Shown here: one piece after another, positions 5,693-60,616 of the stretch | Numbering within the stretch: the first letter of the stretch is position 1 | Layout of the letters: the number at the start of each line of letters is the position of its first letter | Source: Heterotrichella gracilis | Lineage: Eukaryota; Sar; Xanthophyceae; Tribonematales; Xanthonemataceae | DNA: 64,000 bases | NCBI GenBank assembly: GCA_032358255.1 | Contig: JAULBX010028382.1 | Coordinates: 66,329-130,328 of the forward strand | Reading direction: 5' to 3' | The notes under the pieces: model-generated | What the model was told of the DNA's origin: nothing | The model's input: only the letters and a program-made list of their open reading frames with translations | Databases searched by the model: none | Made by a program: the position numbers and the translations under genes

Positions 5693-7343
5693 CTACAGCG
5701 GCTGCACCCTCCTCTCCCACCGCGGGTCCCCAAACACCCTATCCATCATGCGCGCATCGCTCACGTCCACCTCCCGGAAATCGGTGTCAAGGGTGAACCT
5801 GGCCCCACTGCCGCGGCTGACCAGCACCACCCTGCCAGGCTGCTCTGCGCTGGGCTGCACCTCCAGCCATTCCCCACCCGTGGTGCGCACAAAGGTGGTG
5901 TCCCCCTCCATGCGCAGCAGCACCTTGAGGCCGCTCACGGGGATGAGCTCTGGGGATGCGGAAATGGGTTTTTCGGGAGTGGGGACGCGGTGAAGCAAAG
6001 GAGGGAGGTGGGGGGAACGGGGGGGAGGGGAGAGGGGAGGGGATTTCAAATGCGCATGAATGCTGTGTCCCCCTCCATGCGCAGAAGCGCCGCTTTAGGC
6101 CACTCGCGGGGATGAGCTCTAGGGATGCAGTGATTTCAGGGCGGGCTGACGAAGGGGGGTTGTGGGAAGCCATGAGTGATGGGGGCCAAGTAAAACGAGG
6201 TTGGGATGGGAGGCATGGCAGGATTTGGGTTGTTGGAGGATGGCTGTGCGCGGCAGGGTTATGGATGACAGGGCTGGCACGGCGTGGGGAGGCAAAATGG
6301 ATGGCCATGGTGCCATGCAGTGGTGCGGGCAACACATGCATTGCGAGGGAATAAAATTTCGGCACAGCGCCATGGGCCATATGTTGGCGAGCTGGATTGC
6401 GTGCAGGGCTGCAGTCCTGAAGAGAGCACTACAACAAATGCCATGGCATACCCGGAATGAACAGCACCTGGCCATTGGCGTTTTAGGGTTAGCCTTGGCA
6501 CGGAGGGTATATGCAACCCTACCTGGTGTGAAAGGCACCCGCTCCACCTTTGGCACAGCTTGGAAGGCTGCTGCTGCGCCCAGTGCAATGCCCAGCAGGA
6601 TGAAATTCCGCCGGGTGCTGCCCTGCGCGGGAATACGCACTGGAATCGTCAGGCACATGGCTTGCTAGCGCACACGGGGAATGTGTGAAAAAGCGTAGTG
6701 TGGGCGCCATGTGCAGAATTGCAAGCTGGGTGTGTAACGTGTGAAGCTTGAATAAGTAAGACTTCGCACCGGATGCGCAATGTACATGTAAGGCTGTGTG
6801 AGAGCCCTGCGGGAACTGGGTCGCATATGCTCCGAAAATGAAATAAAATGAAAATAATGGCTCTGTGCGCAAGCGGTGGCATCTGGATGGGAGCGCCAGG
6901 TACATTGCAATGGGGTTTGTGTGAAAGACTTGCAGGAACGTTGCTGCATGCTCTTTCTCCAACATTTCAGTGAGAGTGCATACTTGTGGCTGTGCTACCG
7001 TGAGCCCAAGAATTGTTTCGGAAAATACTACCATGTTGCACCTGCCTACAGAATCAAGTGCTTTTATCTGTATTAGAGCAGCCCATACAGGCGACGGTGA
7101 AAATCTTTACTTATATACCCAATAAAGGGAGCTTTGGGTGGTCCATCGCCCACCTGAGCACATGCATGCATATGCAGCATGCATGCATGTCCGCCCCCTC
7201 CCAATGCGCCCCCAACTTACCGAGCTCTCAGGAGGTGGCGGTGGTGGAGGCGGAGGCGGAGGCGGTGCCCGCCGCACAAGCGGTGCCGGGGGCGGGGCCG
7301 GGGGCGGCGAAGTCCTGGGTGTGGTCCTGTTGGGCTTGCCGGC
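5693..7343 (-). CDS. Putative thylakoid-lumen protein, function unknown
   Basis: Three exons join in phase: 7221-7343, 6523-6622 and 5693-5949 (stop TAG). The first encodes a Pro/Ala/Arg-rich stretch with a run of twelve prolines, fitting a plastid transit region; its donor is GTAAGT. The second encodes TRRNFILLGIALGAAAAF, a twin-arginine followed by a hydrophobic segment, as in Tat-dependent thylakoid-lumen targeting signals. The third is a roughly 85-residue globular domain starting ELIPVSGLKVLLRMEGD and ending DPRWERRVQPL, with no family I recognise. A start codon was not found; one more exon upstream of 7343 is likely. Lumen location is inferred from the signal only. The intron before the last exon holds a degenerate second copy of that exon's 5' edge. 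Confidence 0.6.
5898..6130 (-). repeat. Tandem copy of an exon 5' edge in the lumenal-protein gene
   Basis: The start of the last exon with its acceptor (5898-5962) is repeated at 6064-6130 in the upstream intron. The copy keeps the CAG/TAG acceptor and LIPASGLK but then loses the reading frame. Confidence 0.85.
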
Positions 7344-15089: not shown

Positions 15090-18000
15090 ATGGGTAAGCT
15101 GGCAGTCCGGGTTCTTCCACAGCTGGCGTTGCAATCTTATAGCTCCCCCGACTGTTCCCGCCTGAACCCCCAGAATGGATCACATGCCAATCTGCCCACA
15201 GCCTGTCCCCCACCCAGCCCTACAAACCACCTTCCCCTCCATATCTCTGCAACTCAAACCTCATACCATCACACATGCAGCGGCCCCCTGTCCTCCCAAC
15301 CCTGCCCCATGCCCCAGCATGCCACCCCTTCTCCTCAACCCTCGACCGCATGTCCCCCAACTGCAGGCTCCCAGCTGTTTGACCAACCAATCAGAAAGCC
15401 GCCCGCCTGGTACAGCAACGTGCGCCTGCTAGGCCTGCTGTGCTTTGTGCAGTTCTGGGTGTTCCTGGACAGGGGGGTGATCGCCAGCAACGGGGTGAAC
15501 GGGGGACCACCCAGCGACACCCACCCTGGAACAGGCATACAGGTAAGCGGAGTCGGATGCTTTTGCGGCATGCCTGACCCACGCGCATGCGCATGGGACC
15601 TTGATCAGTCAACAGTCGTCAGCGAAAGGATTGGCATGGCATGTCCCGCATGGCACACATTGAGCTTTCAACTGTAACAATCCCCATACGGCACCGACCC
15701 ATGGCCCGCCAATGACACCTCTTTGCTGCTGGGGAGCATCGACCCAACCTTAACCCCACCCGCCACATGCCAGCAAACCACATCCCCACCCGCCACGCCC
15801 ATCTGCGGTAAAACAATGAGTACTGGGCAAATTTGCGCCCATGCTGGCACTTGCGGCAATTCTATTGCAAATGCGGCAGCAGAGACCGTTTCCTTCTCAT
15901 CCACCCCCTTTCCCCCACCACCCCCATTGCCACCCACCCCGCATCGCAGGGCGAGTTCGGGCTGACCCTGACCCAGGACGGCCTCATCCCCGCCCTTTTC
16001 ATGGTTGGCCTCATGGTGGCATGCATAGCGGTGTCGGCTGCAAGCAAGACATGCAGCGCTTTCAGGCTGATAGGTGGGTGCGGCGGTGGTGGTGGTGGGT
16101 GTGGATGTGGGGGGGGGGGAGGTGGAGTGGGGGCTAAGTAGCCTATTGGACGGTTGCAACCAAATGGGTGGTGGGGTGTAGCGATGCACCACTGGCCCTG
16201 CCGCGGTGATCGTGCGTTGCCAGCAATGGCCCCTGCCCTGATGCCTTGCTGCAAGCACAAGAACATTACGTGATGCTGGGGCGCCATGCTGTGGGTGACA
16301 GACAACAGCGCCGCCTCACAGCCCCTCCCCCAGTTGCTCGTGTGCAGTGGACCCACATGCACCCACAAACCCTCCCGTCCTATGGAGACGCAGCCACCCT
16401 CAAAAATCCCTCCCAACACCCCACTAGGCTGGGGCGTCATGCTGTGGGCGCTGGGCTCTGTAGGCTGTAACTCCTCCCGCATCTTACCCCAGCTGCTTAT
16501 ATGCAGCGCACTCAAAACCCCCACCACATACTTCAGCACACACATGCACCCGCCATACACACGCCCGACAAGGGTACACAGTCACTACCACATTACCCCA
16601 CCCACTCGCACTCCCCCACACCACACAGGCTGGGGCGCCATGCTGTGGGCACTGGGGTCTGTTGGCTGCGCCTCTTCCCGCACCTTTCCCCAGCTGCTCA
16701 TATGCCGCGTGATCATGGGTGCGGGTCAGGCATCAATCATCAACCTCAGCGACCCGTTCATCGATGATATCGCGCCCCCCTCGCTCAAGAGTTCGTGGTT
16801 TGCGACGCTGTACCTGGTGAGAGTGGGCGGGGGCAAGGGAGGAGTTGGGACGCACGTGCACATGTATATGGGCTAGGAATTATATAGGGCATATATGCAG
16901 ATATATATTATGTGCATACATCGGCTTGGATGTAGGGCACATCATGCACACATTTATTATGTGTATATATTGGCTACAATTTGGGGCAGATCATGCACAA
17001 ATTTATTATGTGCATATATTGGCTAGGATATAGGGCATGAATGCACATGTATGTTATGTGCATGTCAATGGGGGCCAACGGGTGTGTGCGTAAAGGCCAA
17101 ACCACTTGTGACTGCTCATGGTTGCGCATGGAGCGCATTTCACCTTGCCAACTCTAAAACTAGATAGAATATTGATGGGTGTCCCTGGTCAAGGAGCACC
17201 CGTAGCCCTTCCACTTTGTGCGTTAGGTAAGTAAGTATCTGCATTTCCAACTTAGTATTCAGGTTAGCATGTCTGGGTAAGACCCACCCCAGAGCCAAGG
17301 CTTTGTGCGTAAGGTAACCCTGCCAGTTGTGTGTGTTTTGAGCGACCCACCCACCCACCCACCCAACCCCGTTTTCCTCCCCTGCGTTGCAGTTCCCCTG
17401 CATCGGCCAATCCACTGGCTACATGTTTGGCGGCTACCTGGGCCTCATATACGGGTGGAGGGTGCCGTTCTACCTGCAGGCGCTGGCCTGCCTCCCCCTC
17501 GCGCTGTTCATGGTGACAGCACCCCCTGTGCTGCTGCGAACGGAGACGCCTGCCAATGGCCCCCCGTCAGGTACGCTCGTCATACGCATTCACGCCTTAG
17601 TAATAAGGTAGGTATGTGCCACATCAGCTCTGGAAGCCAGATCAGCCCCAACATATACCTTGTATTAGTGGATGCAGGTGGACATTGCACCTGGGGCATG
17701 CATGTTCCTTTACCTGGAAAAGAGCTTGGATTTTCTTTTTATCTCATATGATCACTGTTAAGAGCTGACCCCTCAAACCAATCGTTGGCCATCAACACCT
17801 CCCACCTCCCCTCCTCCCCCCCCTCGCAGGCCCCATCCCCCCCTCCCCCTCCGACACCTACCTCCCCCACCCAGACTCCCTCACCGACCTCCTCCTCCCC
17901 TCCACGCCTTTCATCCCCCTCCTCACCACCTCCCCCTCCGAGCCCCTGCTCACCCCCGCACCCCACCCCCCCCAGGGGATGTGGTCGGACTTCAAGACCC

Positions 18001-20653
18001 TGTGCCAGCACCCCATGTACATCTACAACCTGCTATCGCAGTGCCCCTACTTCATGTCGGCGGGGGTGTACAACTATTGGGGACCTCTGGTGCGTGCTGA
18101 AAACCCTGCCCATGCTCCTACCCAAGGGTGCCTGTAAACCCTTGGCAAGGGTATTTGAAAGCCTATGCAAGGGCACTGAAAACCCTACACAAGGGCACCA
18201 CCCAATGTACATTTTACACCCTGTTGTCGCAGTGCCCCTACCTCACGTCGGCGGGGGTGTACAAATACTGCAGGTTTTGGGTTTCCAGATGGGGCCCTCT
18301 TGTGCGTGCTGGAAACCCAAAACCCTAAATAGTAAACCCTAAACAGCGCCCATACTTCACGGTCACGAACTGAGAACCAAAAATTCACCCAAAAGTACTG
18401 ACAACCCTCTGGAAGGGTTCTGAAAACCCCCCCACCGCTGATTTCACTGATTCCACTCTCCCCCCTTGCAGGCCATCTCCCAGCTTTTCCACCAGGACCC
18501 CGAAATGGTGGATTTCACATTTGGCCTGGTCACCCTGGCGGTGTCCCTGGTGTCCGTCATTCTAGGGGGCGTAATCCTGGATGTCATGGGGTCCAGCATG
18601 TGGAACGGAATGCTGCTGAATGCCATCACCTGCGGGGCGGCGTTTGCGTTTTTGCTCATGGGGTTCATGGGGGCAACCAGCCTGCCTGTGTTCATGGCGT
18701 TCCTCAGCTTGGGGCTGCTCATGCTGGGCCTGGGAACCGCCGCGCAAGGTGAACGCAACGCTAAACCCTAAAACTGACAACCCTACACATTCCAAACCTA
18801 AACCCTAAGCCCATGCTGCCTGTTTGTCCATGGCGTTCCTCAGCTGGCTGCTCATGCTGGGCCTGGGAACCGCCGCGCAAGGTGAACGCAACGCTAAAAC
18901 CCTAAAACTGAAAACCCTACACATTCCAAACCTAAACCCTAAGCCCATGCTGCCTGTGTGTTCATGGCGTTCCTCAGCTTGGGGCTGCTCATGCCAGGCC
19001 TGGGGACCGCCGCGCAAGGTGAGCAACCCTAAAACCCTAAAACTGGAACCCTGCTGTAGAGTTTTACATTATGTCAAAGCTCAACCCTAACCCATGCTGC
19101 CTGTGTTCAAGGCGTTTTTCAGCTTGGGCCTGGAAACCGGGGGCAGCCCTAAAATGGTCTTACCCGTAACCCTCCAAAGTGGCACAGGTGTACGTCATTT
19201 CTGGGTTTGGCATCTTCTCATATATCTGTTTCTCATTCAGCCACGTGGCCAACCGTGTGACTGAACTCTTTGACTGAATTTCATTCCACATCACCGATAC
19301 GCACACTAACCGACCCCACCATTCCCCCACCCCCCAGGCCTCATCAACATGGCTGCCGTGCCCCCCCACGTGCGCGCCATGGCCACCACCTGGGTGACCA
19401 TAGGGGTGCACCTGCTGGGGGATATACCCTCGCCACCGCTGGCAGGCGCGCTGCAAGGTGCGAAGTTCTTACCCAACGCCCTACTAAGTCCATACGTCCC
19501 AAGCAATCCTTTGAAACCCCGTTGCATAAGCCCTACAGAGCCCTGTCAAAACCTAGCAAAACCCATGCACGCCATGGCCACCAGCGGGGTTAAAGCATTA
19601 GGGTGCACCTGGCGGGGGACCTTGCCCTCGCCACCGCTGGCAGGCGCGCTGCAAGGTAAGAAACCGTTACCCAAAGCCCTACTAAGTCCATACGTCCCAA
19701 GCAATCCTTTGAAACCCCGTTATAAGCCCTGCCAAAACCTAGCAAAATCCTTGCGCGCCATGGCCACCAGCGGGGTTAAGCATTAGGGTGCACCTGCGGG
19801 GGACCTGCCCTCGCCACAGCTGGCAGGCGCGCTGCAACATGAGGGCCGCCAAAATACACCTGACAAACCATGGCAATAATAAACCCTTGCACAGCCCCTG
19901 ACGGACACTCACAGTCACCTGTCCCACTCCCCACCCCACAAAGACCAGTGATCGGCCATCGCACAGTCAACCCCAACCCTTTACTTTGTGTTTCACCCCC
20001 TCTCCTTCCCGTCTCTCCTTCCCGCCTCTCCCTCCCCCTCCATCGGCATTCCTTAAGGTCCCCCTCCCCTGGTCCCCTCCCCGCAGAATGGTCTGGCCAT
20101 TGGAAGGTGACCCTCAGCGCATCCACCCTCCCACTTATGGTGGCCACGATGCTGTACATCATGGGACTCATTGCGTCATGTAAGTGTAATCATGGTCTCA
20201 TTGGGACACTTTCAGTACAAATCATGGGACTCGTTGCGACACTCGTTGGTTACCGGGAAAAGCTCGAGGTGGCTAACAGGGACACCTAAGGGACAAAATC
20301 TGAGTACTTTTGCGCGCCATGTTGGCGGGCCTCCGGTATATCATTATGCTCAAATGTATGTTTTTGTTCCGCTGTTATCCACATGTGCAACCCCTGCTGT
20401 TGACATCTGCACCATCGCACCCTTTTCCCAATCCTCCCACGCACACCCACATCACCCCCACCCACCATCCGCAGTGAGTGCCCCCGACTACCGCCCAGAG
20501 GTCTCCGCGCCCCCCACCCCCACCCCCACCCCCACCACCCCCCGTCCCATCCTGTCCGCCAGCCAGCTCCATCGGGAGGCTTCCATGCACAAGCTGATGC
20601 GCACAGCAAGCTCATCGTCAGGCATGTGGATGAGCGGCATGAGCCCGTGCTGA
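15090..20653 (+). CDS. Spinster-type MFS transporter
   Basis: Membrane transporter of the major facilitator superfamily, spinster branch (lipid or sphingolipid export in known members; substrate here unknown). Exons joining in phase: 15367-15542, 15950-16073, 16629-16816, 17393-17570, 17830-18089, 18472-18748, 19338-19457, 20087-20179, 20475-20653 (stop TGA). Hydrophobic segments are spread through all exons (for example LLGLLCFVQFWVFLDRGVI). Exon 3 has RVIMGAGQASIINLSDPFI, the spinster form of the helix 4 region. Exon 5 begins with a Pro/Ser/Thr-rich cytoplasmic-type loop. The ORF is open from an ATG at 15090 through exon 1, but an acceptor at 15364-15366 suggests an alternative upstream first exon, so the N-terminus is unsure. 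Introns are swollen by tandem copies of exon edges. Confidence 0.88.
16275..16710 (+). repeat. Three tandem copies of the exon 3 start, MFS gene
   Basis: The first about 80 bp of exon 3 occur at 16275-16351, 16428-16507 and 16629-16710; only the last is the in-frame exon. The middle copy keeps an AG acceptor and an open frame (GWGVMLWALGSVGC), so it could be used as an alternative exon start. Confidence 0.9.
16870..17060 (+). repeat. AT-rich intronic tandem repeat, about 55-60 bp unit
   Basis: About four diverged units, each with TTATGTGCATA, a TTGGCTxGGAT-like stretch and GGGCA(T/G)xxxATGCA. Lies in the MFS intron after exon 3. Confidence 0.75.
18005..18315 (+). repeat. Two copies of the exon 5 end, MFS gene
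   Basis: The 3' edge of exon 5 with its donor (18005-18100) is repeated at 18193-18315 in the following intron. The copy keeps the GGTGTACAA core and GTGCGTGCTG donor context but carries an insertion. Confidence 0.88.
18682..19140 (+). repeat. Four copies of the exon 6 end, MFS gene
   Basis: The last part of exon 6 plus donor and about 60 bp of intron repeats with starts near 18682, 18816, 18951 and 19097 (period 134-146 bp). Each unit keeps GCGCAAGGTGA-type donor sequence (the last is degraded) and carries AAACCCTAAA tracts. Confidence 0.92.
19369..19840 (+). repeat. Three copies of the exon 7 end, MFS gene
   Basis: Units start near 19369, 19564 and 19750 (period about 190 bp). Each includes GGCAGGCGCGCTGCAA at the exon end. 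Intron parts of the first two units are nearly identical, suggesting a recent event. Confidence 0.92.
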
Positions 20654-24536: not shown

Positions 24537-27500
24537 TCACTCCACTCCATAGCGTGCCCCAAAGTACTGGTCCACCAGCGCAGCTGCCACGCCCTCGAGT
24601 TCCGTGTGACCCCTGCAGATGGGTAGATATTGATTAATAGGTGATGACAATATGGAATGATGAAAGGTAGTGGTGCTGATGTTGTAGTGTGCACATGTTA
24701 TTTCAAGTAAAGGCATGAAATACACAAACATTTACATAACATAACATGACTAGCTGACCCTGAAGAATCCACACAACTTCCCTCTCTTGTGCATTCTATA
24801 TTTTCTTCCACCTTCTCGCATTTCATTGTGCATTTCCACTGCAGCTTTCAGTCCAATTCTTGTGCCCAGTCCCCGCACCCACCTGAACTGCAGCGCCTCC
24901 AGGGCGTCGATCCCGTCCCCTGCCTCCACCGCCTGCGCCCCCCCTGGCATCATGCGCAGCACCAGCTCGCACACATGCAGCCCAAGCCTGGCGGCCTCGG
25001 CATCGGGGGACCTGCGATTGGTGCATATGTGAGGATGAATGATGGCATAAAAAGGGTTCTGTAGGGTAGTTGTGGCTCAGAGGAGGGTTTGTGTGGGGCA
25101 TCATCATGCGCAGCACCAGCTTGCACACGTGCTGGCCAAGGTAAAAAGTCTTGGTATTGGGGGGACGTGTGGATGTTGAATTTTCAGTACAGGTTTGGGT
25201 GCATATATATGCAAGGATTACTGATGAAAGAAAGAAAGGGGGCGCGCAAAGGGGGAGTTGGGGGGCCACTGGCTCGTGCCAGGGCACCACAGATGACCTA
25301 GACAAGGGTTCTGCAGGGCCCGCGCACAGGGCTTCAGTAGGGTATATGGTGGCCTACAGAAGGGTTTGTGTGGGGTATCTGGTGACCTGGTGCCGGGTTT
25401 CTGTAGGGTATCAGTCTGTAGGGTATCAATCGCTGCTCCAGGTTGTACCCATACAGGGTCTCGCACTCAACCCACGTCAAGCTCAAATATGCCCCAATAT
25501 CCTAGGGATTAGGGTTTCACATTTGTACCTCATAAGTTCAGGTACACCGAGAGGGATCCTACCTCGGGGTTTAGGGTTTCGCACTAGAGCCCAGGCACAC
25601 CCTAGGTATGGAGTTCCACATGCGTACCTCATGAAATTCAGATACACGTCCAACACCTTGGCGTTTTCTCCCAGGATTGTGGTCAGCGCCTGGGGATCCC
25701 CATTGCCTCCCCCACTCCCCGCAAAAATGTTGGCCATTGCAAATCCCGCTTCCTTGCGCACTTCAAAGGGCGATACAAGCAGAGCCTGCACGAGGACGGG
25801 GATGGCTCCGATCCCCACCAGCAGGTTGACTCCATCCCTGCCAAAAAAGGTGGAAAGGGTGTAAAACACTTTGTGAACTGAAATGCGCGGTCTTGAGCCC
25901 CTGCTATGCTGTCATCCTCCCTCGCATTACTCCCCTCCTTGCAATTTACTACCCTTCACTCCACTTTATTCCACCAGTGCAACAGCAGCCAGCAAACGGG
26001 TACAGGGGTGGGATAGGCACCATTCAACACCCACACCCACCACGTACATTTGCGTACCGGCAGGATGCACATGTGGGTACAATAGTGGGGTGTACGATGT
26101 AACGCCCAGACGCTCCCATTGCAAGACTCCCACCCCATTCCATGCCATAACGCACCCACCTGCCGGGCAGACCCGCGACGTTGGCCAGCGCCCATGCTGC
26201 CTCCTTGGCCACAACCCGCGGCTGTGCCGACAGGCACCACAGCAGCGCCGAAGTCGACGCCGAAGCCAGGTCAGCAGCACCCACGCCACCTGGCGCCGAT
26301 GCCGGGGAGGTTCCGCCTGTTGCCGCCGACGGGCCCACCAGCACGGCGCCAGCTGGCGCCAGCGCGTGGTGCGCGGATTCCTGCGAGGTTGGGGTTTTGC
26401 CTGTGGCTGCCGGCGCGGGCACCAGCTGGGCGCCAGGTGGCGGCAGGAGCTGCGCCGCGGCCTTGGCGGTCCCGGCTGCCGCGATGTTTCCCAGAGAGCG
26501 GAGCACGGGGATGAGGAGGGCGCGGGAGGCATCTGGGTCATGCTGCACCTGCAGGGGTGGGATGGGGGGTCCATGGTCTCTGTATAAGTAGTATTTGTTT
26601 CCTTCTGCTTTTGTTATAAAATACGAATGGGCAACCCATTTGACCTATTGTTTTACATGAAAAATAGATGTGCAACCCATTTGATCAGGTTGCCCATGGC
26701 TGTAATTCTTGGATACAAATAAGTAATAGTAATATCCCACCTTTGTTCCAGCAAAACAGCCAAATTGGCAGACAGCTTACTACATTCCGGTGTCAGCAAT
26801 AGGGGAATTGGCTTTCATGACCACCCAGCAACAACTTACCTTGGCCACTGCATGCAGCAGCAGGCGCTGCAAGGGGGGGATGACACCCAGTGCCACCAGG
26901 CGGTTGAGGTGCGTGTCGGGACCTGCAATGCAGTGGGTTTGGGGGGTTCATAGGGCTTTCACGCTCGTTTTGAAGAACGTGCTTTCCCACTTCCTTTGCA
27001 AACAAGGCCACATACTACTCATGCATGCATGCCTTGTTTGCCTTCCCCGTTTGCTTGTCCTTGCACACCATGATGAGCGGTCATTATATACATGCCTCCC
27101 GCTGGATTTGACACCGCCGCCATGGCAATTGACTGTGGTTGGGCTCAAGTGCAGCGGGCTTCCCACCATCAATTTGTTTCTCATCAGCTGATATATAGGC
27201 ATGTATTTGTTTCACTCAATTGGAAGATGCAGATAATTGCAAGTTTTCTTCATGTGGTTTCTCATATGGTTTCATTGCTTGTATCATGCGATTTCCCATA
27301 CCTGCAGTGATGTACACCGCCACCCACGCCAGTTCCACAGTCACCTCCCAATGGACGTTGGACTGCAGTAGTGCAACCACATGCTCCGGAAAGTGCGGCA
27401 CATTTAGCAGGTCGCCGATCTGCAATGGCACAGAGCACACCTTCATTGCAGTGCAAAATTACATCAACATATATCTAAACTCAATTATAGTATGCGACTT

Positions 27501-41150: not shown

Positions 41151-41179
41151 ATTGACCAGATCTGGCTGTCTTGCTTGCA

Positions 41180-45475: not shown

Positions 45476-48238
45476 ATGGATGACGATGATGACTTCCCGC
45501 CAGAAGCTGTCGCTCTGGACATATCACTCCCCGCAGGTACTGTGCGCACACCACCCACCCTGCATGCCACCACCTACCAACCAACACAGCCCTGTACCCT
45601 TACGATGGTTCACTGATATGGTTCAATGACATAATTAAACCCTGCACCGACAGAAAAAGAGGCTGCTTTGAAGGATGCGCCCAAAGGCAGTGGTGCTCCA
45701 AGGGGGAATGGTCGAGAGGGTGGCAGGCCACCGGTACCTGTCACTATCATAACAGGTGAGCACCTCTCCCACTGGCGTTGCAACCCCACGTGTTGACCAT
45801 TCACACTCATAGTGCAACCTGTTGTGCTCTTGGCAGCGGGTTGTATGGATATGCATGCCCATGGCATGTTTGCCACTGTCCTCTTACCTAGTTCCCTGTG
45901 CACATCTAGGTTGTTACGCTAGTCATCATGTTTCCACCAGCAGAATAAAGTATCAGGGGTCCTATGCAAAGCATGAGCCATGCGCCTGCTGAACTCACCT
46001 TTGGGAGCTGGCACGACCCTAAATCTTAAACCCTAAACATGGTCCAGGTCACTTGGGGTCTGGCAAGACCCTAAATCCTGAACCCTAAACCCTGGTGCAG
46101 GCCACTTGGGGTCTGGCAAGACCACCCTGGTGAACTACATCCTCACCGCCAAGCACGGCTACAAGGTGGCCGTCATACTGAACGACGTGGGGGAGGAGAC
46201 AGGCATAGAGAAAGTACTCCTAGAGAATGCAAAGGTGGCCAGCCTACACCCTAAAGTCGACACCCGTGCACTGTCGTTTGCCCCCTTGTGTTGGAGGACA
46301 CAAGGCCTTGCCTGCTTGGGCTCATTTAGACAGAGTGTATATTGTATCTGGTCATAACTGAATATAGCTGAATTTCCAGCATGGCAGGCCAGCCCCTGTT
46401 TCATATGTACATGGGTACCCCATTATATAATTTGGAGGATATCAATAACCCTCTCCCCCACGCAGGATGGCGCCGTCACCTCCCTTGAGCAGTGGGTTGA
46501 GGTGAGCAACGGCTGCCTGTGCTGCAGCGTGAAGAGCGAGTTTGTGCACGCGCTGGAGTCGCTGATGGAGCAGCGCAGCAGGTTTGACTACGTGCTCATT
46601 GAAACGACAGGTGGGTTAGGATTTAGGGTTCATACTTTAGGGTTTAAAGTTTGTGCATGCGCTGGAGTCGCTCATAAAGTAGCGCAGCAGGTTTGACTGC
46701 GTGCTCGTTGGGACTTCAGGTGGGTAATGGTTTTAGGGTTCATGATTCAGGGTTTGGAGTTTGTGCATGCGCTGGACTCGCTGATGGAACAGCGCAGCAG
46801 GTTTGACTACGTGCTCATTGAGGCCACAGGTGGGTCAGAATCTAGGGTTTAGGGTTCAAAATTTACGATGTACTGTTTGTGCATGGCGCTGGACTCGCTC
46901 ATGGAGCTGCGCAAGCAGGAGTTTGTGCTCGTTGAGACAACAGGTGGGGAGTGGGCGAGGGAGGTGGAGAGGGTTTTTGGCACCATTAAAGCTTGGCATG
47001 CTCATTGAAATGCAAAATCATGTAGTTTTTGCAGGCCAAGCGGACCCTACACCCCAGACCCTAGACGCTGTCCCCAAAATCTCAAACCCTAGATCATCAA
47101 CCCTAAACCCTTAACCCTAGATTCCTGGCGCGCAGGACTGGCCAACCCCGGCCCAGTGGCCTCTGCCCTGTGGACCGATGCCGAGCTTGAGGCCGCTGTG
47201 TGCCTGGACTCGATCGTGACGGTGGTGGATGCGCGCAACGTGCTGCGCCAGCTGGGCAGGGAGGTGCCAGGTGGCGGCGCATCGGAGGCGCAGCTGCAGA
47301 TTGCGTATGCGGACGTGGTGCTGCTCAACAAGGTGTGGTTTCAGGGTTCTGGATGTAAGGCGCAGGGAGTTAAGGGTTTATGGGTTCAGGTGAGGATGTA
47401 GGATACGTTCCATTACCTGTGGACAGCAGGCGGTGCACCCTGCAATCCCCGGTATCCCTGAGCCGGGCTTCCAGTAGGAAAACTAACCAAACCCTCGTGG
47501 TTTCCCTAGGTGGATCTGCTTCCGGATGAGGCCTCCATCGCCCACATAGAGCACCACATTCGCCAGCTCAACCTGGGTGCTGCCATCCACCGCACCACCC
47601 GCTCCCAGCTGGACCTTGGACTGCTGCTGAGCCGGGGGGCCTACACCGACGCCGCCTCGCTTGCGCAGTTTGCTGCTGTTGAAGAGGATGGTAGTGGAAG
47701 TGGCGGTGGTGGTGGTAGCGGCGAGGATGGTGAGGGGGCAGTTGAGTGCAGCATGTGTGGGCATGATCATCCACATGACCATGCGCATGCACATGGGGGG
47801 GATGGAGGCTGGGCAGGCGGTGAAAGGGAACAAGGGGGTGAGGGAGCGTCGACAGCAGGGGAGGGAACGCACGGGGGCAGCAGCGTTCATACCGCCCACG
47901 GCGGGGTGGGGACGGTGAGCTTTAGGGTTCCTGGGAGGGTTTCTTTGCCCAAGCTGCGGGCGTGGCTGGACACCATTCTGTGGGAGAGGGATGGCCAGCA
48001 TGACGACATTTTCCGCATGAAAGGGGTGCTTTACCTCGACGGCAGCCCATCAGTTCATGTATTGCAGGTTGTGTATGAGTTGTATGACATTCTGGAGGGG
48101 CCCAGGATGGAGGGGGGTGAGGGTGGTGGGCAAGGGAGTGAGGGGGAGGTGGTGTTGAACCGGATGGTGGTCACCGGGGCGCACCTGTCGAGGGAAAGGC
48201 TGGTTGCAGGCTTCAGCTCCTGCTTGGTAGACACATAA
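45476..48238 (+). CDS. COG0523 G3E GTPase, CobW/ZNG1 type (metal chaperone)
   Basis: GTP-dependent metallochaperone family; ZNG1 members deliver zinc to client enzymes. Exons in phase: 45476-45536, 45654-45755, 46101-46234, 46466-46610, 47136-47332, 47510-48238 (stop TAA). It starts [20 protein letters not shown]. Motifs in order: Walker [16 protein letters not shown], the metal motif CLCC (NGCLCCSVK), IETTG, the guanine-specificity NKVD split over a splice site (LLNK then VDLLP), a Gly-rich linker, a His-rich loop [11 protein letters not shown] after CSMCG, and a CobW C-terminal domain ([28 protein letters not shown]). The N-terminal CPELVP motif that docks ZNG1 on methionine aminopeptidase is absent as such (FPPEAV sits there). 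Two introns are filled with exon-edge copies. Confidence 0.93.
45995..46125 (+). repeat. Three copies of the Walker-A exon start, CobW-type gene
   Basis: CACTTGGGGTCTGGCAAGACC, the exon 3 start, recurs upstream at about 46049 and, degraded, 45995, with period of about 52 bp. Each is followed by CCCTAAA tracts, and the two clearest have CAG-type acceptors (GTCCAG, GTGCAG). Confidence 0.9.
46550..46945 (+). repeat. Four copies of the exon 4 end, CobW-type gene
   Basis: The last about 60 bp of exon 4 with donor recur with starts at 46550, 46659, 46769 and 46886 (period 109-117 bp). Copy 2 has an in-frame stop, copy 3 is fully open ([21 protein letters not shown]), copy 4 is diverged. All keep CAGGTGGG and are separated by TTTAGGGTT tracts. 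Confidence 0.95.
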
Positions 48239-49289
48239 TGCATGTGATGATTCATGCGGTGCAGTTGCAGGTGGCATATGCTGTCAATCCAAATTACATT
48301 TGCGTCAACTTGGACCATGTATCCGATATATACGATTCGCATGCTGCGTACCGTTGCATATCAGTGTGCACCGAGGCCATGGCAACATTCCGTGCAGGTA
48401 GCCGGACGCTGAAATATTCACATGGGCAAGCTGCCAGTGCGGTTCAAGCAGACGCAATTATTTGACTCAAATGATTTACTTTTCATTAAATAGGCGCTGC
48501 AGCACTCTCGGAGTCCGTCAGGAGCTCCCCCTTAGGGCTAGGCTAGCAACTGTGGTACCCATAGGGCTTCAAAAACCTGACATGGCAGGCCGCTCTGCCG
48601 CAGATGGCAATGCTTGTCAAAAATGCCTCGCAGTAGAACCTCACTTGACTTATCATGCATGCAGAAAAGGAATGAAACTGCTTCGTTGCATCAGTCCTTC
48701 CAAACGAGACAAAGAACGATGAAGTCAAATTTGTCACTGGCAGCTCACGCGATGGGAAATGCCTTCTAAAAACGCCTACTCCATTGTCTGTCTTCTCCTA
48801 TCTACTGGACAGTGTGTAGAGCAGCCAGTGCACAGCTCTTCCAAATTGGTGCAGCACCTAGTGCAATCCCAACTGCACGAGGCAGCCATGCACCCTCCCC
48901 ACCCACCCCGCACCCCACCATGCATTCAAGACCCGCTGCTTCCCAAACAATGTAACAAAATCGCTCCATTCTGCAGGAGTGCGGCAGCATGAAACCCCAT
49001 CCTGCGGCCTTGCGGCCCCTGGCGCTGCAACCCCTCCAGTATTCACCCCGCACTCAATGTGGCTCGCTCATCACTCCAATACCCCGCTGGCTGCAGGCAT
49101 GCGCGTTGTATTCCCTCATCCCCTAGTCCCTCATCCTCTTGTCATTGTGCCTGTCCCAATTCCCCTGATGCGACCGCTCCAGCACCCCCGGCTGCAAGGC
49201 CAGCAGCAGGCCTGCTAATGACAGCCCACCCTTGCGCCTCCAGCACAACCCATCGCCACCCAGCGTGTCCATGCACCGCCCCCTCCCTG
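48239..49289. other. Convergent intergenic region
   Basis: 3' flanks of the CobW-type and GTP cyclohydrolase genes (1,051 bp). TGTAAC occurs at 48950-48955. No gene recognised. Confidence 0.45.
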
Positions 49290-50892
49290 TCATTGCGGCT
49301 CGCCATTCTCACTATGGTTCTCATGCTGCAACTGCTCCAGCACCTCCGGCTGAATGGCCAGCGGCAGGCCGGCCGAGGAAGGCTCCCCCTCGTGGTTCCA
49401 GTAGCAGAAGCTGCCGTCAAAGTCGTGCGACATCCGCGCCTGCTTGGTGGCCAGGTAGCCCTTGCTGTACTCCTGGGCCTCAACGATGCATGGGATGCGG
49501 TCCACCACGTTGATGCCCAGCCCCCGCAGCTGGTTGATCTTCCGGGGGTTGTTGGTCTGCAACACACGGAACAACAATCCATCAATACGGTTGTAATATT
49601 ATAATTCAATTAAATGCACATATGTGTATATATGTATTTACTTGGATCAATGCACCATGCAACAGAGTGTCCACCCAGGCCAGACAGGTTCACAGCGTGT
49701 GATATAAAATATGACTATTAACCTGCAAGTCACTCAGTGCATCCCGCCATACAGCAAGTTAGCAGTCCGCCTTGCATGCACAGCGTCAGGCAGGTATGTC
49801 CTTACAATGGCAGTGTGTGTGTGTAACGAGTACATACGCGCAAGCAAACATGCATGAGCGCGTTCAGCAGGTGTTATTGTGTGTGTTGCTGCACGCACAA
49901 TGAGTTTGATGCTATTTATGCCCAGCTCCTTGATGATGTGCTGCACCGAGCTGTACTCGCGGCAGTCGTCAGGCAACCCCAGGGCGCGGTTGGCATCCAC
50001 AGTATCAAGCCCCTTCTCCTGCGGGGAGTGGAGAGGGTGGAGTTCAGGCATACACGCACAAGCCAGTGCCGTGCGTTTGCAGACACAAAGCGGGCTGTGG
50101 CCAAACACAGTTGTCAACAATACAATTCGTCCTGTGTGCACTTTCTAGCAGCGCCTTCAAACTGACGGCCCACATCCCCAAACACACCACCCACCATCAC
50201 CACCACCACACCCACCACTGGCGTACCTGCATGGCATAGGCTGCGATCTTGTTGGCCAAGCCGATACCCCTCCCTTCCTGCTGCAGGTAGATGACCATGC
50301 CTGGCGGGTGGTCTTGGATGTACTGCAGGGAGAGCTGCAGCTGCTCAGCGCAGTCGCACTTCATCGAGCCCAGCACCTCTGAAGTGAAGCAGGCGTCGTG
50401 GACCCTCACGGCCACCCCCTCGCCCCCCTCCACCTGCCCTTGGATGATGCAGCAGGGCTCGGTGAAGGTCTTGCCCCCGTCCACCGAGTGCCTGTACCCC
50501 CGCAGCCTGAACTTGCCCTTGTGTGTGGGTAGCAGCGTCTCAGCTATGAACTTGGTGGAGGTTGATGAAGAGGTGGAGGGCCCATCTCCAAGGCCTGGGT
50601 GGCCCTCAACGTGGGCTATCCCAACGCCTGAGATACTTGTGCCGTTCAGGTGCTTGCCGTTGCTGTGGCTGCTGCTTGTGGATGGGTCAGTGTGGCTGTT
50701 TGCCAAGCCATACACTTGTTGGATGCCCCGCCTGCCAACGCCACTGTTGGCCTTGAAACCCCTGGGTTGCCGGGACGGTCTCCACCCAGCAAACGTCACG
50801 GTGTTGGGGGAGCAACTTGCCACCATCCCGCTCCGAGTGCTGCCCACGCTTCCAACATCCAGATGCATGGCCTGCATGCTTGTGTGTGCCAC
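49290..50892 (-). CDS. ribA: GTP cyclohydrolase II, stand-alone (riboflavin synthesis)
   Basis: Opens the GTP imidazole ring in the first step of riboflavin synthesis, normally in the plastid in plants. Three exons, 50227-50892, 49899-50018 and 49290-49556 (stop TGA), give 350 residues, all in phase 0. About 110 N-terminal residues are Ser/Thr-rich and could be a transit region. The catalytic domain shows the zinc cysteines in HDACFTSEVLGSMKCDCAEQ, then YLQQEGRGIGLANKIAAYAM, DTVDANRALGL, DDCREY, and TNNPRKINQLRGLGINVVDR. Odd: there is no DHBP synthase (RibB) domain on either side, although plants and many algae use a fused RibBA. The C-terminus (SHDFDGSFCYWNHEGEP) differs from the usual GHLL end. 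Confidence 0.93.
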
Positions 50893-55152: not shown

Positions 55153-58100
55153 ATGTCGGTCGTCAAGGGCTCTATCAGCCCCAGGGGTGGCGCCTTCACC
55201 CGCAGGCTCCCTGCATGCCAGCACCTGCACCTCAGCAGCTCGCACAGGCCTCTCGATAACAGCACGTTTGTTGGGAAGCCTGTAACATCCCCAAGAAGGT
55301 TGTTTCAAGTGCGGGCAACAGCACAGAGTGACAGCAGCGAGGCAGGAACCTCTGCTCGCCCATGGGGCCTAAATGGCTCCAAAAAGCAGGAGGGCCCTTC
55401 CACTGACTTGTCTATCATATGGGACCGGTTCATAAAGGTAGGGCTGATTTGAAGCCAAATGACTTGCATAGCAATCGCCCTCTGGCTGGGAGTGCCTGGG
55501 TTTGAATGATTTCCTCTTGCATTGATGTGGGTATTGGGCGCGTTCTCTGTGGGTGGTGGTTGCCAAACGTATGCTATGCCAGCAACGCATATGTTGCTTA
55601 ACCAATATGCGTGGTGCGAACGCCAAGCTGGACAAGTGTCATATGCATGGAAGACAGCTCCTTGTTGTTTGTTGTACAACACACCAGTTATCATGGGCCA
55701 TGACTTGTACCCACAAATTGAGTGCCGATCACTTGGGTGCAGCTGAGCATCCCCTACTGGACCTCCTCCGAAGAGGCCACTGCTGCACGGTGGAGGCTAG
55801 GAGGGGTGGTGGCGCTCACACTGGGGACCACAGGTGTCAGGTGGGTCAGCTGTCATGCCAGGGTACACGGCGTGAGGCGCCATGCCCTTCCTGCACCCAC
55901 CTATGGGATAGGGTCTGTTATGGGTTGGCCCTGCTTTGTGACAGCACTGTAACCCAATGCAGGCACTGACCCTGTTATGGGAGGCGCCACACCATGCTGG
56001 CTGCTTAATCTGCTGCACCCAAAGCGTGCACTTTTGCTGATCACCTTGTGCCAATCCAACTCCGCATGACCAACGCATTGAACACCGAGCCCAGTGCATG
56101 TACTGCTACTGATCACGCTGTGCAACATCACACCCCCAATGCATGACCCACCAGCCCAGTGCATGGTCACATGCCAGCGCCTGAGCATTACATGCCACCC
56201 CCATGGCCCTGCAGCGTGCTGTTCAACTTCCTTGGGCGCGACTTCTTCAACGCCATCTCCGAGAAGGACGCCGAGAAGTTCACTGAGATGCTGATCAAGT
56301 GGCTGGTGTCCCTGGTGCTGGGGATCCCCGTGTTTGTCTTCCGGGACTACTACAGGGACTGCCTGGCCCTGGAGTGGCGGCAGTGGATGACCAAGGACCT
56401 GACCGCAAAGTACTTCAAGAACCGCAGCTTCTACCAGATCCAGGTTGGGCAGCTGGTGGACAACCCCGACCAGCGTATCGCCACGGATGTCAGGTTGGTG
56501 ACGGTGTGGGTCCAAAGGTTGGAATTATATTGGCAAGCTTGATGGAAGCATGCCAATGTGAAATTGCAATATCTTGAGTACTGGAGATGGCGATAGTTTT
56601 CATGGCCAATAATACACTGTTCCAACTTGGGGCCACGTGCACATGCTCCATGTTGCCCTGCACTAATCCCATTCCAAGTCCTGGGTATCCATGGAGACAT
56701 AGAAGAGGTGCAGCGGGGACCCGTCTGCACACCATATCACACGCTGCATGGTACCACAGAGGGCAGGTAATATCCTCAGGGCTTTTGACGGCCTGCGCTT
56801 AGCACACCTAGTCACCTGCCTCCCCGCCAAGGAGTCTATGTACCATACCTATATATCTTTATTTGTATTTTATTTTCAACTATTTTATCATGCTTTTTTC
56901 ATATGTTAGCAAAATGAGCATTACGGTAGTTGATACTAATATCCATCAATACCCAGAGTTTTTCAATTTCCCCCAGGGTGTTCACCGACACCGCCATCGG
57001 CTTCTCCATGACCATTCTCAACGCGCTGGTTGACCTGGTGTCATTCTCAGGCATACTCTACTCAATCTACCCGCCGCTCTTCACCGCGCTGCTGCTGTAC
57101 TCCGTGGGGGGCACATACGTGTCACTGGTGCTGGGGAAGCCCCTGGTGGGGCTCAACTTCCAACAGGAGGCACAGGAGGCGAACTTCAGGTGCGCCGGAA
57201 TTACCCTACGAAATACCCAATGGAACACACAATGAACCTCAAAAAATAAAATGTACTGCGTGCCTGTGGCCTGTGGGGCGCCCCACCCGCTGTTCATAGC
57301 CCTGATGCTGTCCGTCATTGGGGTACATGCCCTGCAGGAATGACATCTGGACAACGTTCTAGGGCATGCGCTATAATGTAGGGGCGCACAAAACCTTGGA
57401 AAAGTACATGCTGGAAATACTTTGAAAATCGCATTGTGGTCAGCTATGTCTTGCTGGTGATGGACAATCTGCTGGTGGCGCTCCATCTCCAGCAGGCGAA
57501 AAATCCCAATTCTACCCCCTGCAGGTACGGCCTGGTGCGCATCCGCGAGAATGCCGAGAGCATCGCATTCTACGGCGGCGAGGACAGCGAGAAGCGGCTG
57601 CTGTATGATCGACTGGTGGCGGTGGTGACCAACTACGCACAGATACTGGTCACATCAAGGAACCTGCAGTTCTTCACGTCCTTCTACAGGTGGGTGGGCC
57701 CTTGCTTAGGGCTTTAGGGTGTACGCAGACCTACAACCTGCAGATTGGATTGCTGTTCTGGCAGATTGGATTGTTCTACAAGTGGACGGCTTTTGAGTAC
57801 TCAGGGTGTAGGGTGTTTGCTCGCTGCCAGCATCCATGGGGTAAGGTTTAAGGTTAGGCTCAGCCATTGCTTGGTCAAAGCGTCATGTTGTTGCCATCCA
57901 CTGGATCTTATCACTATTGCTGCCACCACTGCAAGCCTATGGCCAGCAGCACGTCACCTTGTCACCTCCCACCGCAGGTTCATGATCCAGATCCTTCCAT
58001 CTGCCGTGGTGGCCCCCTTGTACTTCAAGGGGCTGATTGAATTTGGGGTCATCACGCAGAGCGCATCCGCCTTCAACCACATCCTGTCCGATGTGTCGCT

Positions 58101-60616
58101 GGTGGTGTACCAGGTGGGGACCAGGGATGAACCTGCTCTTTGTACCAGGAATCGAAAATGAGAACCGAAATTAAATAGTGAAATTGAACTGAAAATTATT
58201 GTTCAGTCTTCAGACGTGGTGGTGCCGCAGGTGGGAACCAGGGATCAACCTGTTTCGTGTAGCAGGAAAGCGACAAATTTGTTGAAGGAGTTCATGACTC
58301 GTTCAAAATCCAACCAGGTCTTAGAATGTGCATGCTCCTTCTACCAAAACAACAACATTTATTCATCGTGACACATCAATGAGTAATCTGGTAATGGCAA
58401 TTTGTGATTGTGGCGCAGTTTGAGAGCCTGGCAGGGTTCAGCGCTGTGGTTGACAGGCTGGGGGAGTTCAGTGAGGCCATTGATGCGGCGGGCACCAGGG
58501 GGGCTGTAACAGCCAGCACAAGCACAAGCAAGGACGGGGAGGCGGAGGTGGAGCGGGGCCCAGTGGAGGGGCAGATCTTATTGGTGGATGTGGAGCCGCA
58601 AGGTGAGGGGTGGGGTGTGTGCATGCTATAGCCCTGAGCGTGGATTACCGACACATCAACATGCATGCAATCATGCTGTGGTCAAGGTCTGCCACTGATC
58701 TACCTGCATTGGTACAGGGGTCACTCGGAAGTTGGGTACATTCCGCCTTGCCCTGTCCCCTCTTGTGCCTTACCAGTGCCTTACTCGTGCCTTACCCTAT
58801 GCAGGGCCTCGGCTGCTTGACCTGGAGGGTGTCACCCTACGAACGCCTGACGGGAACAACACGCTCATCCACGACCTCAACCTACAGGTGATTTTGTGAT
58901 TGGGTTGAGGTTTGGGGATTAGGTTGTGGGGTTCTCAACGGGAACAGCACGCTTATCCATATGGTGAGGGGCTGTGAGGGGTGGGCATGTGAGGGGCGAC
59001 AAACGATGTGCTTCCACGCTTGGACCAAAAGCGCCCCTATAGGCATCCTGTAGCAGCACCCTGTAAACGTCCTGTTGCAACACGTGTAATAAATTCTCTC
59101 CCCCCAGCAGAGTGCCATGCTCATGCCTTTCCCCCCTTCCCTCCCCTTGCCAGGTGTCAGAAGGTGAGTCGCTGCTCATCATGGGCCCCAGCGGCACAGG
59201 CAAAACCTCGCTGCTGCGTGCGGTGGCGGGCCTGTGGAGCAATGGCGACGGCACCGTGCGGCGGCACGGGGAGCCAGTGGGGATCCATGGGAGCGATGGG
59301 GATATATTTTTCGTGCCCCAGAGACCCTACGTGGTGCTAGGAACCCTAAGGGACCAGCTGCTTTACCCTACCTGGGCCACGCTGGAGGCTGAGGAGGGGG
59401 GGGATGGGGAGGCGGGTGTGAGCGGGGAAGGGGACGGGAGCGTGGTTGTGAGGAGTGGAGCAAATGGCAGCGGAAATGGGAACGGGTAGGTTGTGCGGGG
59501 GGGTATTGCTGCCTTGACATGTTGTTGGAAATCCTAGCCTGCCGTCACTGGGTGTCTACCCATCCGTTGCGCAGCAGATGATTGCACTCAATGGTTACAT
59601 GCCCCGTCCATTTTTTAAAGGGCAGCTGAAATTCTATTTGAGTAGCCAATGAGGGCAAACCCAGAACCACCACAATTGACAGCACCCAACAGAGAACCTT
59701 ATTCATGGAAACATTTTGAGACTTTAACAAGTGACCGTCCGCTTCATGTGCAGCAACGGCGCCTCCTCCTCCTCCCCCTCCCGCCCCTCCCCCACCGGCG
59801 CCGCATCTTCCTCCCGCCCCTTCCCCACCGATGTGCAGATGGAGTCGGCGCTGCGGCGGGTACGGCTGGGTGGCCTGCTTGACCGTGTGAGCGAAGACTC
59901 TGGCGGGTGCGGGCTGGACTATGTGGCGGACTGGGCCACCATGCTGTCGCTGGGGGAGCAGCAGCGGCTGGCGTTTGCAAGGTGGGGGTGGGCAGGGTTG
60001 GGTGGATGGGCGGGAGGGATTTCGTGGTGGGAGTGAGGCATGGGCTGGGATAGGTGGGGCATGGGTGGGTGGGGCATGTGTGGGTGGGTGGGGTGGGGTG
60101 GATGGCGAGGAGGATTGCAGGGCACGTCGATGGGAGTCTGCTCAGGCCAGGCGCTTCAGGAGCGATTGGTTGGCGAGGCCATTGCTGTTACTGCATTGCT
60201 CAGCATGAACGTCACTACCTCCCTGGACATGCCACACACTTCCTATCCCCTGTATGCCCTGACGCCACACACACACATGCACACACACACGCACCACATT
60301 CTAGGGTTCTGCCCCCCCCCATTCAACCCCAATTTCCGCACCCCCCAGGGTCCTGCTCACCCAGCCACGCCTGGTCCTCATGGACGAATCCACATCTGCC
60401 CTTGACACCACCAACGAGCGCAGCCTGTACCGGGAGCTGGCAGCAGACAGCATCACCTACATCAGCGTGGGCCACAGACCCACCCTCACCGCCTACCACC
60501 AGAATGTGCTGCAGCTGGGGGGTCGTGGGGAGACAGAGGGTGGGGAGGAGGGGGTGGAGAGGCCCAGCTGGCGGTTGCTGAAGGCGGAGGAGGTGGTGGA
60601 GCCTGTGGGGGTGTGA
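55153..60616 (+). CDS. ABCD-like (YddA-type) half ABC transporter, probably plastid
   Basis: Half transporter with one membrane domain followed by one ATPase domain. Exons in phase: 55153-55437, 55743-55840, 56215-56493, 56977-57189, 57525-57689, 57978-58113, 58419-58602, 58805-58887, 59154-59485, 59754-59981, 60349-60616 (stop TGA). The first 75 residues are Ser/Arg-rich with little acid, like a plastid transit peptide. The membrane domain has YWTSSEEATAARWRL, LLGIPVFVFRDYYRD-type and EWRQWMTKDLTAKYF, typical of ABCD/YddA. The ATPase domain has Walker A GPSGTGKTS, Q-loop PQRPYVVLGTLRDQLLYP, signature LSLGEQQRLAFAR, Walker B LVLMDESTSALD and switch ISVGHRPTL. Odd: a Gly/Ser/Glu-rich insert of about 60 residues lies between Q-loop and signature, at an intron position. 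Closest known type is plant ABCD2; substrate unknown. Confidence 0.93.
58096..58267 (+). repeat. Two copies of the exon 6 end, ABC transporter gene
   Basis: The end of exon 6 and its donor (58096-58150) recur at 58213-58267, 117 bp apart, sharing GGTGG(T/G)-type and CCAGGGATxAACCTG sequence. Confidence 0.85.
58846..58965 (+). repeat. Partial copy of the exon 8 end, ABC transporter gene
   Basis: ACGGGAACAACACGCTCATCC in exon 8 recurs as ACGGGAACAGCACGCTTATCC about 87 bp downstream in the next intron. Confidence 0.85.

What the first reader, a model, noticed from the sequence alone, without database searches (positions are those of the whole stretch)
5898..60616. Exon-edge tandem duplication is a genome-wide habit here
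Beyond the CobW-type gene the same pattern occurs in the lumenal-protein gene (6064-6130), the MFS gene (four exons), importin alpha (25090-25175, 28408-28490), ovoA (34608-34665) and the ABC gene (58213-58267, 58937-58962). Copies are always direct, adjacent, and include the splice site; they occur at either the 5' or 3' exon edge. Such uniformity suggests one mechanism, for instance repair synthesis slipping at splice junctions, acting on many genes.
Basis: partly seen in the sequence, partly recalled or inferred. Interest (0 to 1): 0.85.

Follow-up and report, generated by a model that had tools for sequence, protein, structure and literature searches.

The report
Dead exon-edge copies in algal introns
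In this alga-like genome many introns carry a decayed partial copy of the neighbouring exon's edge, best read as scars of break repair that duplicated a short stretch of DNA, sometimes with telomere repeats at the joint; they matter as raw material for new splice sites and introns.

Summary
In 152 kb of this assembly I found 43 clusters of local direct repeats (none in shuffles) and four inverted pairs. Of 38 clusters spaced 50 bases or more, 27-29 lie within 12 bases of an exon-intron junction; rotated gene models give 14-17, and 0 of 1000 reach it. 32 of 202 complete introns carry a copy. 'Adjacent' and 'always includes the splice site' do not hold: 18 of 35 pairs lack clear intron-side homology, and some copies stop inside the exon.

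The intron copies are dead (mismatches 67/75/140 by codon position; 22 of 25 gaps shift frame). Faster intron decay hides intron-only duplications and explains part, not all, of the junction excess. TTTAGGG, apparently the telomere repeat, is the strongest intron word and lies within 10 bases of the duplication's new joint in 8 of 35 pairs (control 2-6%), against 1 of 35 at the other end; within 40 bases the flanks differ less.

Best explanation: tandem duplication during break repair, sometimes with telomeric repeats, then neutral decay. Targeting of splice junctions is not shown. No related genome was available.

The parts
5884..5959 (-). Functional exon edge (acceptor side, exon 5693-5949, lumenal-type protein)
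   Evidence: 83% over 78 bases to 6051-6128; gene model
6051..6128 (-). Dead copy of that edge inside the intron
   Evidence: 10 mismatches, one 2-base gap
16614..16709 (+). Functional exon edge (acceptor side, exon 16629-16816, MFS gene)
   Evidence: 84.5% over 97 bases to 16412-16508; MFS_1 3.8e-18 for the spliced model
16412..16508 (+). Dead copy in the upstream intron; a further fragment at 16275-16295
18006..18079 (+). Functional exon end (donor side, MFS gene); homology stops 10 bases before the predicted donor
18196..18270 (+). Dead copy in intron
   Evidence: 85% over 75 bases
18677..18810 (+). Functional exon end, donor and intron start of a 134-base unit (MFS gene)
18811..19132 (+). 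Two full and one partial dead tandem copies with telomere-like repeats
   Evidence: gaps in the copies; donors at 18744, 18877, 19014; CCCTAAA runs
19371..19565 (+). Functional exon end and intron start of a unit of about 195 bases (MFS gene)
19566..19837 (+). Dead tandem copies
   Evidence: 86% over 287 bases
24948..25026 (-). Functional acceptor-side exon edge (importin-alpha-like gene)
25102..25181 (-). Dead copy
   Evidence: 72.5% over 80 bases
28294..28360 (-). Functional acceptor-side exon edge (importin-alpha-like; Arm 4e-13)
28410..28476 (-). Dead copy
   Evidence: 76% over 67 bases
34798..34862 (-).
   Evidence: FGE-sulfatase 1.1e-8 for the spliced model
34608..34657 (-). Dead copy
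   Evidence: 83% over 41 bases plus 21 exact bases
46101..46123 (+). Functional acceptor-side exon edge (CobW P-loop exon)
   Evidence: TRF period 52
46001..46071 (+). Dead copy with AAACCCT runs
46538..46647 (+). Functional exon end, donor and intron start of a 109-base unit (CobW gene, cobW 1.4e-34)
46648..46965 (+). Three dead tandem copies with TTTAGGG runs between them
   Evidence: CAGGTGGG donors at 46608, 46717, 46827, 46941
49318..49401 (-). Functional donor-side exon edge (GTP cyclohydrolase II 1.7e-55)
49160..49243 (-). Copy, read as dead; the gene model places part of it in a predicted last exon (49123-49211)
   Evidence: 75% over 84 bases
58100..58151 (+). Functional donor edge of ABC transporter exon 57978-58113
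   Evidence: 81% over 52 bases; ABC_membrane_2 4.2e-49
58217..58268 (+). Dead copy, mostly intron and donor
58850..58871 (+). Exon-internal source of a 22-base copy
58938..58959 (+).
   Evidence: 20 of 22 identical

Best explanation
The copies are scars of local tandem duplication made by DNA break repair. A break with long overhangs, or staggered nicks, near an exon is filled in on both sides and rejoined, so a unit of roughly 100-200 bases ends up twice (inferred). In about a third of cases telomere-type repeats were added at, or lay beside, the new joint (association shown; telomerase as agent inferred). If the unit spans a splice junction, the copy nearest the exon body keeps the splice site and coding role and the outer copy is spliced away with the intron, so the mutation is nearly neutral (inferred). 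The outer copy then decays freely (shown). Duplications inside exons are purged and those inside introns become unrecognisable sooner (inferred), so a scan mainly shows exon edges. That filter explains part of the junction excess; the rest is open.
For: 43 clusters versus 0 in shuffles and 4 inverted pairs. The MFS1, MFS2 and CobW arrays copy exon end, donor and intron start as one unit. The one unit searched genome-wide is locus-specific apart from one 47-base match of its telomere-like part. Introns with a copy are longer (median 435.5 versus 287). Dead copies: mismatches 67/75/140, 22 of 25 gaps frameshifting, 5 stops in 595 codons. Telomere: heptamer permutations head the list of enriched intron 7-mers and 8-mers (AAACCCTA 65 versus 3.0 expected); TTTAGGG runs open contigs C70 and C140; a telomerase RNA-binding domain is encoded; heptamer within 5/10/20 bases of the new joint in 5/8/11 of 35 pairs versus 1.2/2.1/3.5% (introns without a copy) and 3.9/6.0/9.4% (introns with one), but 0/1/4 of 35 at the copy's other end; 17 of 41 intronic runs of 10 bases or more lie in duplication intervals covering 8.8% of intron bases, 10 of 34 without the two big arrays, P 5e-4. 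Precedents: small tandem duplications from CST-guided fill-in at 3-prime overhangs (PMC8355091, passages); telomeric insertions at breaks with direct target duplication in horse, primates and rodents (PMC7215372, PMC2246262, passages).
Against: In 18 of 35 pairs intron-side homology is near control level although the exon part is often 80-93% identical; neutral decay at the array-measured rate predicts more. A junction share of 0.77-0.81 exceeds the 0.48-0.56 simulated for intron decay 2-3 times faster. 21 of 35 joints have no telomeric heptamer within 60 bases. In 40-base windows the enrichment is not confined to the joint: 13 of 35 there, but also 12 of 35 beside the functional junction and 8 of 35 beyond the copy's junction end, partly because spacers are short and repeats lie inside tandem units. 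Runs inside a tandem unit are counted once per copy. Telomere-like tracts could be the cause (fork stalling) instead of the product. No empty ancestral site could be compared.
Confidence: 0.57

Rival explanations
1. Copying is really aimed at exon edges: a transcription- or splicing-linked process (R-loops, nicking at splice junctions, RNA-templated repair) copies the exon end up to the splice site into the adjacent intron, without the intron flank.
For: 27-29 of 38 clusters within 12 bases of a junction versus 14-17, or 21-24 overlapping one versus 10-14; little intron-side homology in 18 of 35 pairs; 24 of 34 edges are donors; no clusters with spacing of 50 or more in 25.9 kb of predicted intergenic sequence.
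Against: The MFS1, MFS2 and CobW arrays and several other pairs copy intron sequence too. Exon constraint plus faster intron decay gives much of the same picture. Intron-only clusters are also rare (7-8 in 85.6 kb), so none in 25.9 kb intergenic is not a strong signal. A mature-mRNA template would run into the next exon.
Confidence: 0.2
2. Old random tandem duplications whose exon parts are refreshed by gene conversion with the functional exon, so only the exon edge still looks young.
For: Exon parts far more alike than intron parts in many pairs.
Against: Frameshifts and a roughly 1:1:2 codon pattern accumulate in the copies as in free decay; copy-versus-copy intron parts in arrays are only about 1-3 times more diverged.
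Confidence: 0.12
3. The copies are alternative or mutually exclusive exon parts kept by selection.
For: About half of the donor-type copies still carry GT (by eye); some pairs differ mostly at third positions, e.g. L030 7183 (0/0/4) and L030 7021 (3/4/14).
Against: 22 of 25 gaps shift the frame, stops occur, and the overall codon ratio 67/75/140 fits a dead copy beside a constrained exon.
Confidence: 0.05
4. Assembly artefact: unmerged haplotype overlaps.
For: The assembly seems mixed (C331 has 35% GC), and no reads could be checked.
Against: Copies with frameshifts, mostly 4-26% mismatch, up to four units per array; where checked the gene's own exon reads through.
Confidence: 0.06

Closest known systems
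Tandem genomic duplication crossing an intron-exon boundary, potato RdRp gene (PMC4974935; abstract and Results and Discussion section read)
   Same: Direct tandem duplication that includes a splice junction; the two copies differ; confirmed there by reads
   Different: Single case that produced a new intron; here tens of cases in 152 kb, copy silent inside the old intron (inferred, no RNA), telomeric repeats near some joints
[quoted passage not shown] PMC2891723, passages)
   Same: Local tandem duplication in genes as source of splice signals
   Different: There the intron has the size of the duplication and starts from exon sequence; here the intron is longer than the duplication and holds the copy
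CST/Pol alpha-dependent small tandem duplications at breaks with 3-prime overhangs (PMC8355091, passages)
   Same: Direct, local, short duplications from break repair; telomere fill-in machinery
   Different: Shown in mouse and human cells, short (overhangs of 43 bases used, under 100 bases described); no telomeric repeats or introns reported in the passages seen
Interstitial telomeric repeats inserted during break repair (PMC2246262, PMC7215372, passages)
   Same: Telomeric repeats at repaired breaks, sometimes with direct duplication of the target; none in exons in human
   Different: Target duplications are a minority there (6 of 130 rodent, 4 of 25 primate, 3 of 66 horse loci) and not tied to exon edges
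Introners (recalled, not tested against a reference)
   Same: Many introns changed by one process
   Different: Introners are dispersed repeats; the one unit searched here is locus-specific, and one cross-locus intron match was seen in the sample

Membership tests
Local tandem duplication by break repair | Copies in direct orientation at short distance | tested here: met
   43 direct clusters versus 4 inverted pairs
Local tandem duplication by break repair | Whole unit, intron part included, repeated head to tail | tested here: inconclusive
   Intron-side score strong in 7, weak in 10, near control in 18 of 35 pairs
Local tandem duplication by break repair | Empty ancestral site in a relative | not testable with these tools
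   No related genome is held (stated)
Telomeric repeat insertion at breaks (short ITS) | Exact runs of the organism's telomere repeat at internal sites | tested here: met
   41 intronic runs of 10 bases or more, 0 in 40.3 kb of exons, 3 intergenic; 101+108 four-unit hits in the assembly, control 0, contig-end runs included
Telomeric repeat insertion at breaks (short ITS) | Located at the repair joint | tested here: inconclusive
   Enriched but in a minority: 8 of 35 within 10 bases, none within 60 in 21 of 35
[quoted passage not shown]
   As a set, introns with copies have median 435 bases while spacing is 41-229; not tested pair by pair
Introners | Dispersed similar intron sequences | tested here: inconclusive
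   One MFS unit hits only its own locus plus one 47-base telomere-like match; only one unit was searched genome-wide
CST-guided tandem duplication | Dependence on CST/Pol alpha | not testable with these tools
   Needs mutants; CST genes were not searched for

The most novel reading that the evidence does not exclude
In this lineage breaks near exon-intron boundaries are routinely repaired by telomere-type end processing (telomerase addition plus CST-like fill-in), which duplicates the exon edge with its splice site and drops telomeric repeats at the joint, so that introns are steadily lengthened and supplied with spare splice sites.
Probability: 0.26. Interest if true: 0.8.

Novelty: new variant of a known kind. 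Interest (0 to 1): 0.57.

Why it matters
About one intron in six in the sample carries a recognisable dead copy of the neighbouring exon edge (32 of 202). That makes intron remodelling by tandem duplication, often argued from single cases, countable in one genome, and ties it to telomeric repeats near the joint, a link that a whole-genome scan or a telomerase mutant could test directly. Such copies also supply extra donors and acceptors for alternative splicing and intron gain.

Tried and rejected
Rejected or replaced: a dispersed element as source (one unit only). Coding constraint on the copies: a first uncurated count (199/202/254) contained spurious alignment tails and was replaced by trimmed local alignments. 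In one search two of 35 rows (window 58113 and L030 3706) aligned to another part of the exon (101 and 66 bases from the junction) and were left in. blastn self-comparison missed many short-spacing repeats near the main diagonal, so I added an offset scan; conversely that scan misses gapped pairs which blastn sees (24948/25102, 58100/58217, c35b 2478/2612). Uniform random placement as sole cause was rejected. The class with two junctions in one unit was assumed purged in the second simulation. Register errors remain in some rows (18748 among them); the extension alignments allow shifts.

Inverted pairs: one of the four has an arm (46838-46879) inside the CobW array region, and one (L034 2180-2219/2226-2265) runs over a predicted exon end; none pairs an exon edge with a distant intron copy as the direct ones do.

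Limits: gene models come from my own hidden Markov model trained on the same sequences, with no RNA; mini-exons predicted inside copies were relabelled as intron by rule and by hand. I picked the 35 pairs by hand from the scan and blastn. Clusters with spacing under 50 bases (5 of 43) and exon-interior sources (2-3) are left out of the 35-36 used for the junction share. 200 kb of contig C331 turned out to be 35% GC, presumably bacterial, and was dropped.

Papers: passages of PMC8355091, PMC2246262, PMC7215372, PMC2891723; abstract and one section of PMC4974935; all others seen only as search listings. Nothing like this in green algae appeared in the listings of searches (listings are capped, e.g. 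12 of 385); searches returned no paper. The library holds open-licence papers only. The alga identity is inference: no call named the organism; the rRNA family search failed and no Rubisco large-subunit match was found.
Full report
What was checked. The window (C586:66329-130328 of an unnamed 68.5 Mb assembly) is intron-rich. I compared it with seven further 10-kb stretches (L029-L035) and five short stretches around other CobW exons: 151,842 bases in all. A gene-finding hidden Markov model trained on these sequences gave clean splice signals (donor CAG|GTGNG, acceptor YYTGCAG|G), 421 junctions, and seven predicted proteins or parts that were scanned all matched Pfam families.

The repeats. 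An ungapped offset scan (spacing 12-600, score at least 20) found 103 hits in 43 clusters, against 0 in three shuffles; in the window 52 hits against 0 at offsets 3000-3588. The matching scan for inverted pairs found four: 46838/47083 (its left arm lies in the CobW array region), 43909/43963, L030 2937/3021, and L034 2180/2226, which runs over a predicted exon end. Of the 38 direct clusters with spacing of 50 or more, 27 by best hit or 29 by any hit lie within 12 bases of a junction, 7-8 are intron-only, 2-3 have an exon-interior source and none is in predicted intergenic sequence. Rotating the gene models gives 14.1 and 17.1 (sd 2.9); without the 12-base margin the figures are 21 and 24 against 10.4 and 13.8; no rotation of 1000 reaches any of these four. 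Without the CobW-anchored loci the largest P is 0.001. The window alone is marginal (P 0.03-0.07), the new loci are strong (17 of 21 with margin, 13 of 21 without; P 0.003 or less). 32 of 202 complete introns carry a catalogued copy, and these introns are longer (median 435.5 versus 287, P 8e-4).

Anatomy. I curated 35 functional/copy pairs at 34 junctions (24 donor, 10 acceptor), from the scan and from blastn. Spacing is 41-229. The exon-side match is 17-99 bases long, and 18-165 bases lie between the copies in 34 of 35. On the intron side 7 pairs score 20 or more, 10 score 10-20, and 18 score under 10, near the control level. So the copies are not always adjacent. In 12 of 35 the trimmed alignment ends 2-10 bases inside the exon, though in several the match resumes across the junction. 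Two MFS arrays and the CobW array are head-to-tail repeats of exon end, donor and intron start.

Fate. In the pairs, mismatches by codon position are 67, 75 and 140 over 639, 635 and 636 sites; 22 of 25 gaps shift the frame; 5 of 595 codons are stops. This is what is expected if the intron copy is free and the exon changes mainly at silent sites. By eye about half of the donor-type copies keep a GT, so I see no sign that their splice sites are conserved; this was not tested formally.

Why at junctions? If units of the observed size are duplicated at random and decay equally everywhere, 38-43% of detected events would span a junction. If intron sequence decays 2, 3, 4 or 6 times faster, the share is 0.48, 0.56, 0.61 or 0.75, and intron-side homology is lost accordingly (share of strong pairs 0.52, 0.42, 0.22, 0.18). 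Observed: 29 of 36 by any hit, 27 of 35 by best hit, with 0.20 strong. Comparing copies inside arrays, intron parts are about 1-3 times more diverged than exon parts and richer in gaps. So ascertainment explains a good part of the pattern, not all. The remainder could be targeting, gene conversion, or errors of my gene models.

Telomere repeats. The words that head the list of enriched intron 7-mers and 8-mers are permutations of TTTAGGG (AACCCTA 102 versus 10.4 expected). TTTAGGG runs open contigs C70 and C140, so this is presumably the telomere repeat; four-unit runs are common in the assembly (101+108 hits, contig-end runs included, control 0). Runs of 10 bases or more in the sample: 41 in introns, 0 in exons, 3 intergenic; 17 of the 41 lie in duplication intervals that cover 8.8% of intron bases (P 2e-8; without the two big arrays 10 of 34, P 5e-4; runs inside a tandem unit count once per copy). 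18 of 32 introns with a copy hold a telomeric heptamer versus 51 of 170 without (P 0.007). Within 40 bases of the copy's exon-inside end a heptamer occurs in 13 of 35 pairs, versus 5% of random windows in introns without copies and 13% in introns with them; but 12 of 35 functional junction flanks and 8 of 35 outer flanks of the copy have one too. Close up the ends differ: 5, 8 and 11 of 35 within 5, 10 and 20 bases of the exon-inside end, against 0, 1 and 4 of 35 at the copy's junction end. The exon-inside end is the new joint of a tandem duplication, so the asymmetry points to addition at the break. 21 of 35 joints have none within 60 bases. A telomerase RNA-binding domain is encoded on C626.

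Mechanism. The best fit is break repair with long overhangs or staggered nicks, fill-in, and end joining, sometimes with telomeric repeats added. CST-guided Pol alpha fill-in makes small tandem duplications in mouse and human cells (PMC8355091, passages), and telomeric insertions with direct target duplications, explained by staggered breaks, are described in horse and, as a minority class, in primates and rodents (PMC7215372, PMC2246262, passages). Shown here are the repeats, their decay and the telomere association; the break, the fill-in and telomerase are inferred. A single tandem duplication across an intron-exon boundary is described in potato (PMC4974935).

Verdict. The pattern is real and present at most sampled places, the copies are dead, and 'one mechanism' is plausible, but a mechanism aimed at splice junctions is not shown. 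The telomeric repeats near the joints are the new lead.

Noticed in passing
G000 contig C331 (L009-L028): 35% GC, with a CobW match in an open frame of 1143 aa: presumably bacterial; the assembly seems mixed.
   Followed up: partly
60341-60772 and 63299-63774: Second, diverged copy (66% over 487 bases) of an ABC transporter exon region 3 kb downstream, same strand.
   Followed up: no
38575-38739 and 41912-42074: Inverted intergenic repeat pair (73%) about 3.4 kb apart, possibly a transposon remnant.
   Followed up: no
43903-44005: Strong imperfect palindrome in a predicted intron (arms 43909-43946 and 43963-44000, loop about 17 bases).
   Followed up: no
46838-46879 and 47083-47124: Inverted repeat pair about 200 bases apart in the CobW intron; the left arm lies inside the exon-edge array region near a TTTAGGG run at 46843-46856, the right arm near a CCCTAAA run at 47099-47111, so opposite telomeric runs may form it.
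   Followed up: no
16865-17063: 49-base minisatellite inside an MFS intron, near-palindromic (65% over 175 bases).
   Followed up: no
62153-62406: Predicted exon of Q/V/A-rich repeats, tandem at DNA level with period 138; may also be an exon-edge duplication. Not among the 43 clusters.
   Followed up: partly
G000:C173:89224-89497 and C120:45692-45792: Internal clusters of exact TTTAGGG arrays.
   Followed up: no
L030 (C110:20001-30000): Unusually dense in such duplications: twelve of the 43 clusters lie in these 10 kb, around a saccharopine dehydrogenase-like gene; L029 has three.
   Followed up: partly
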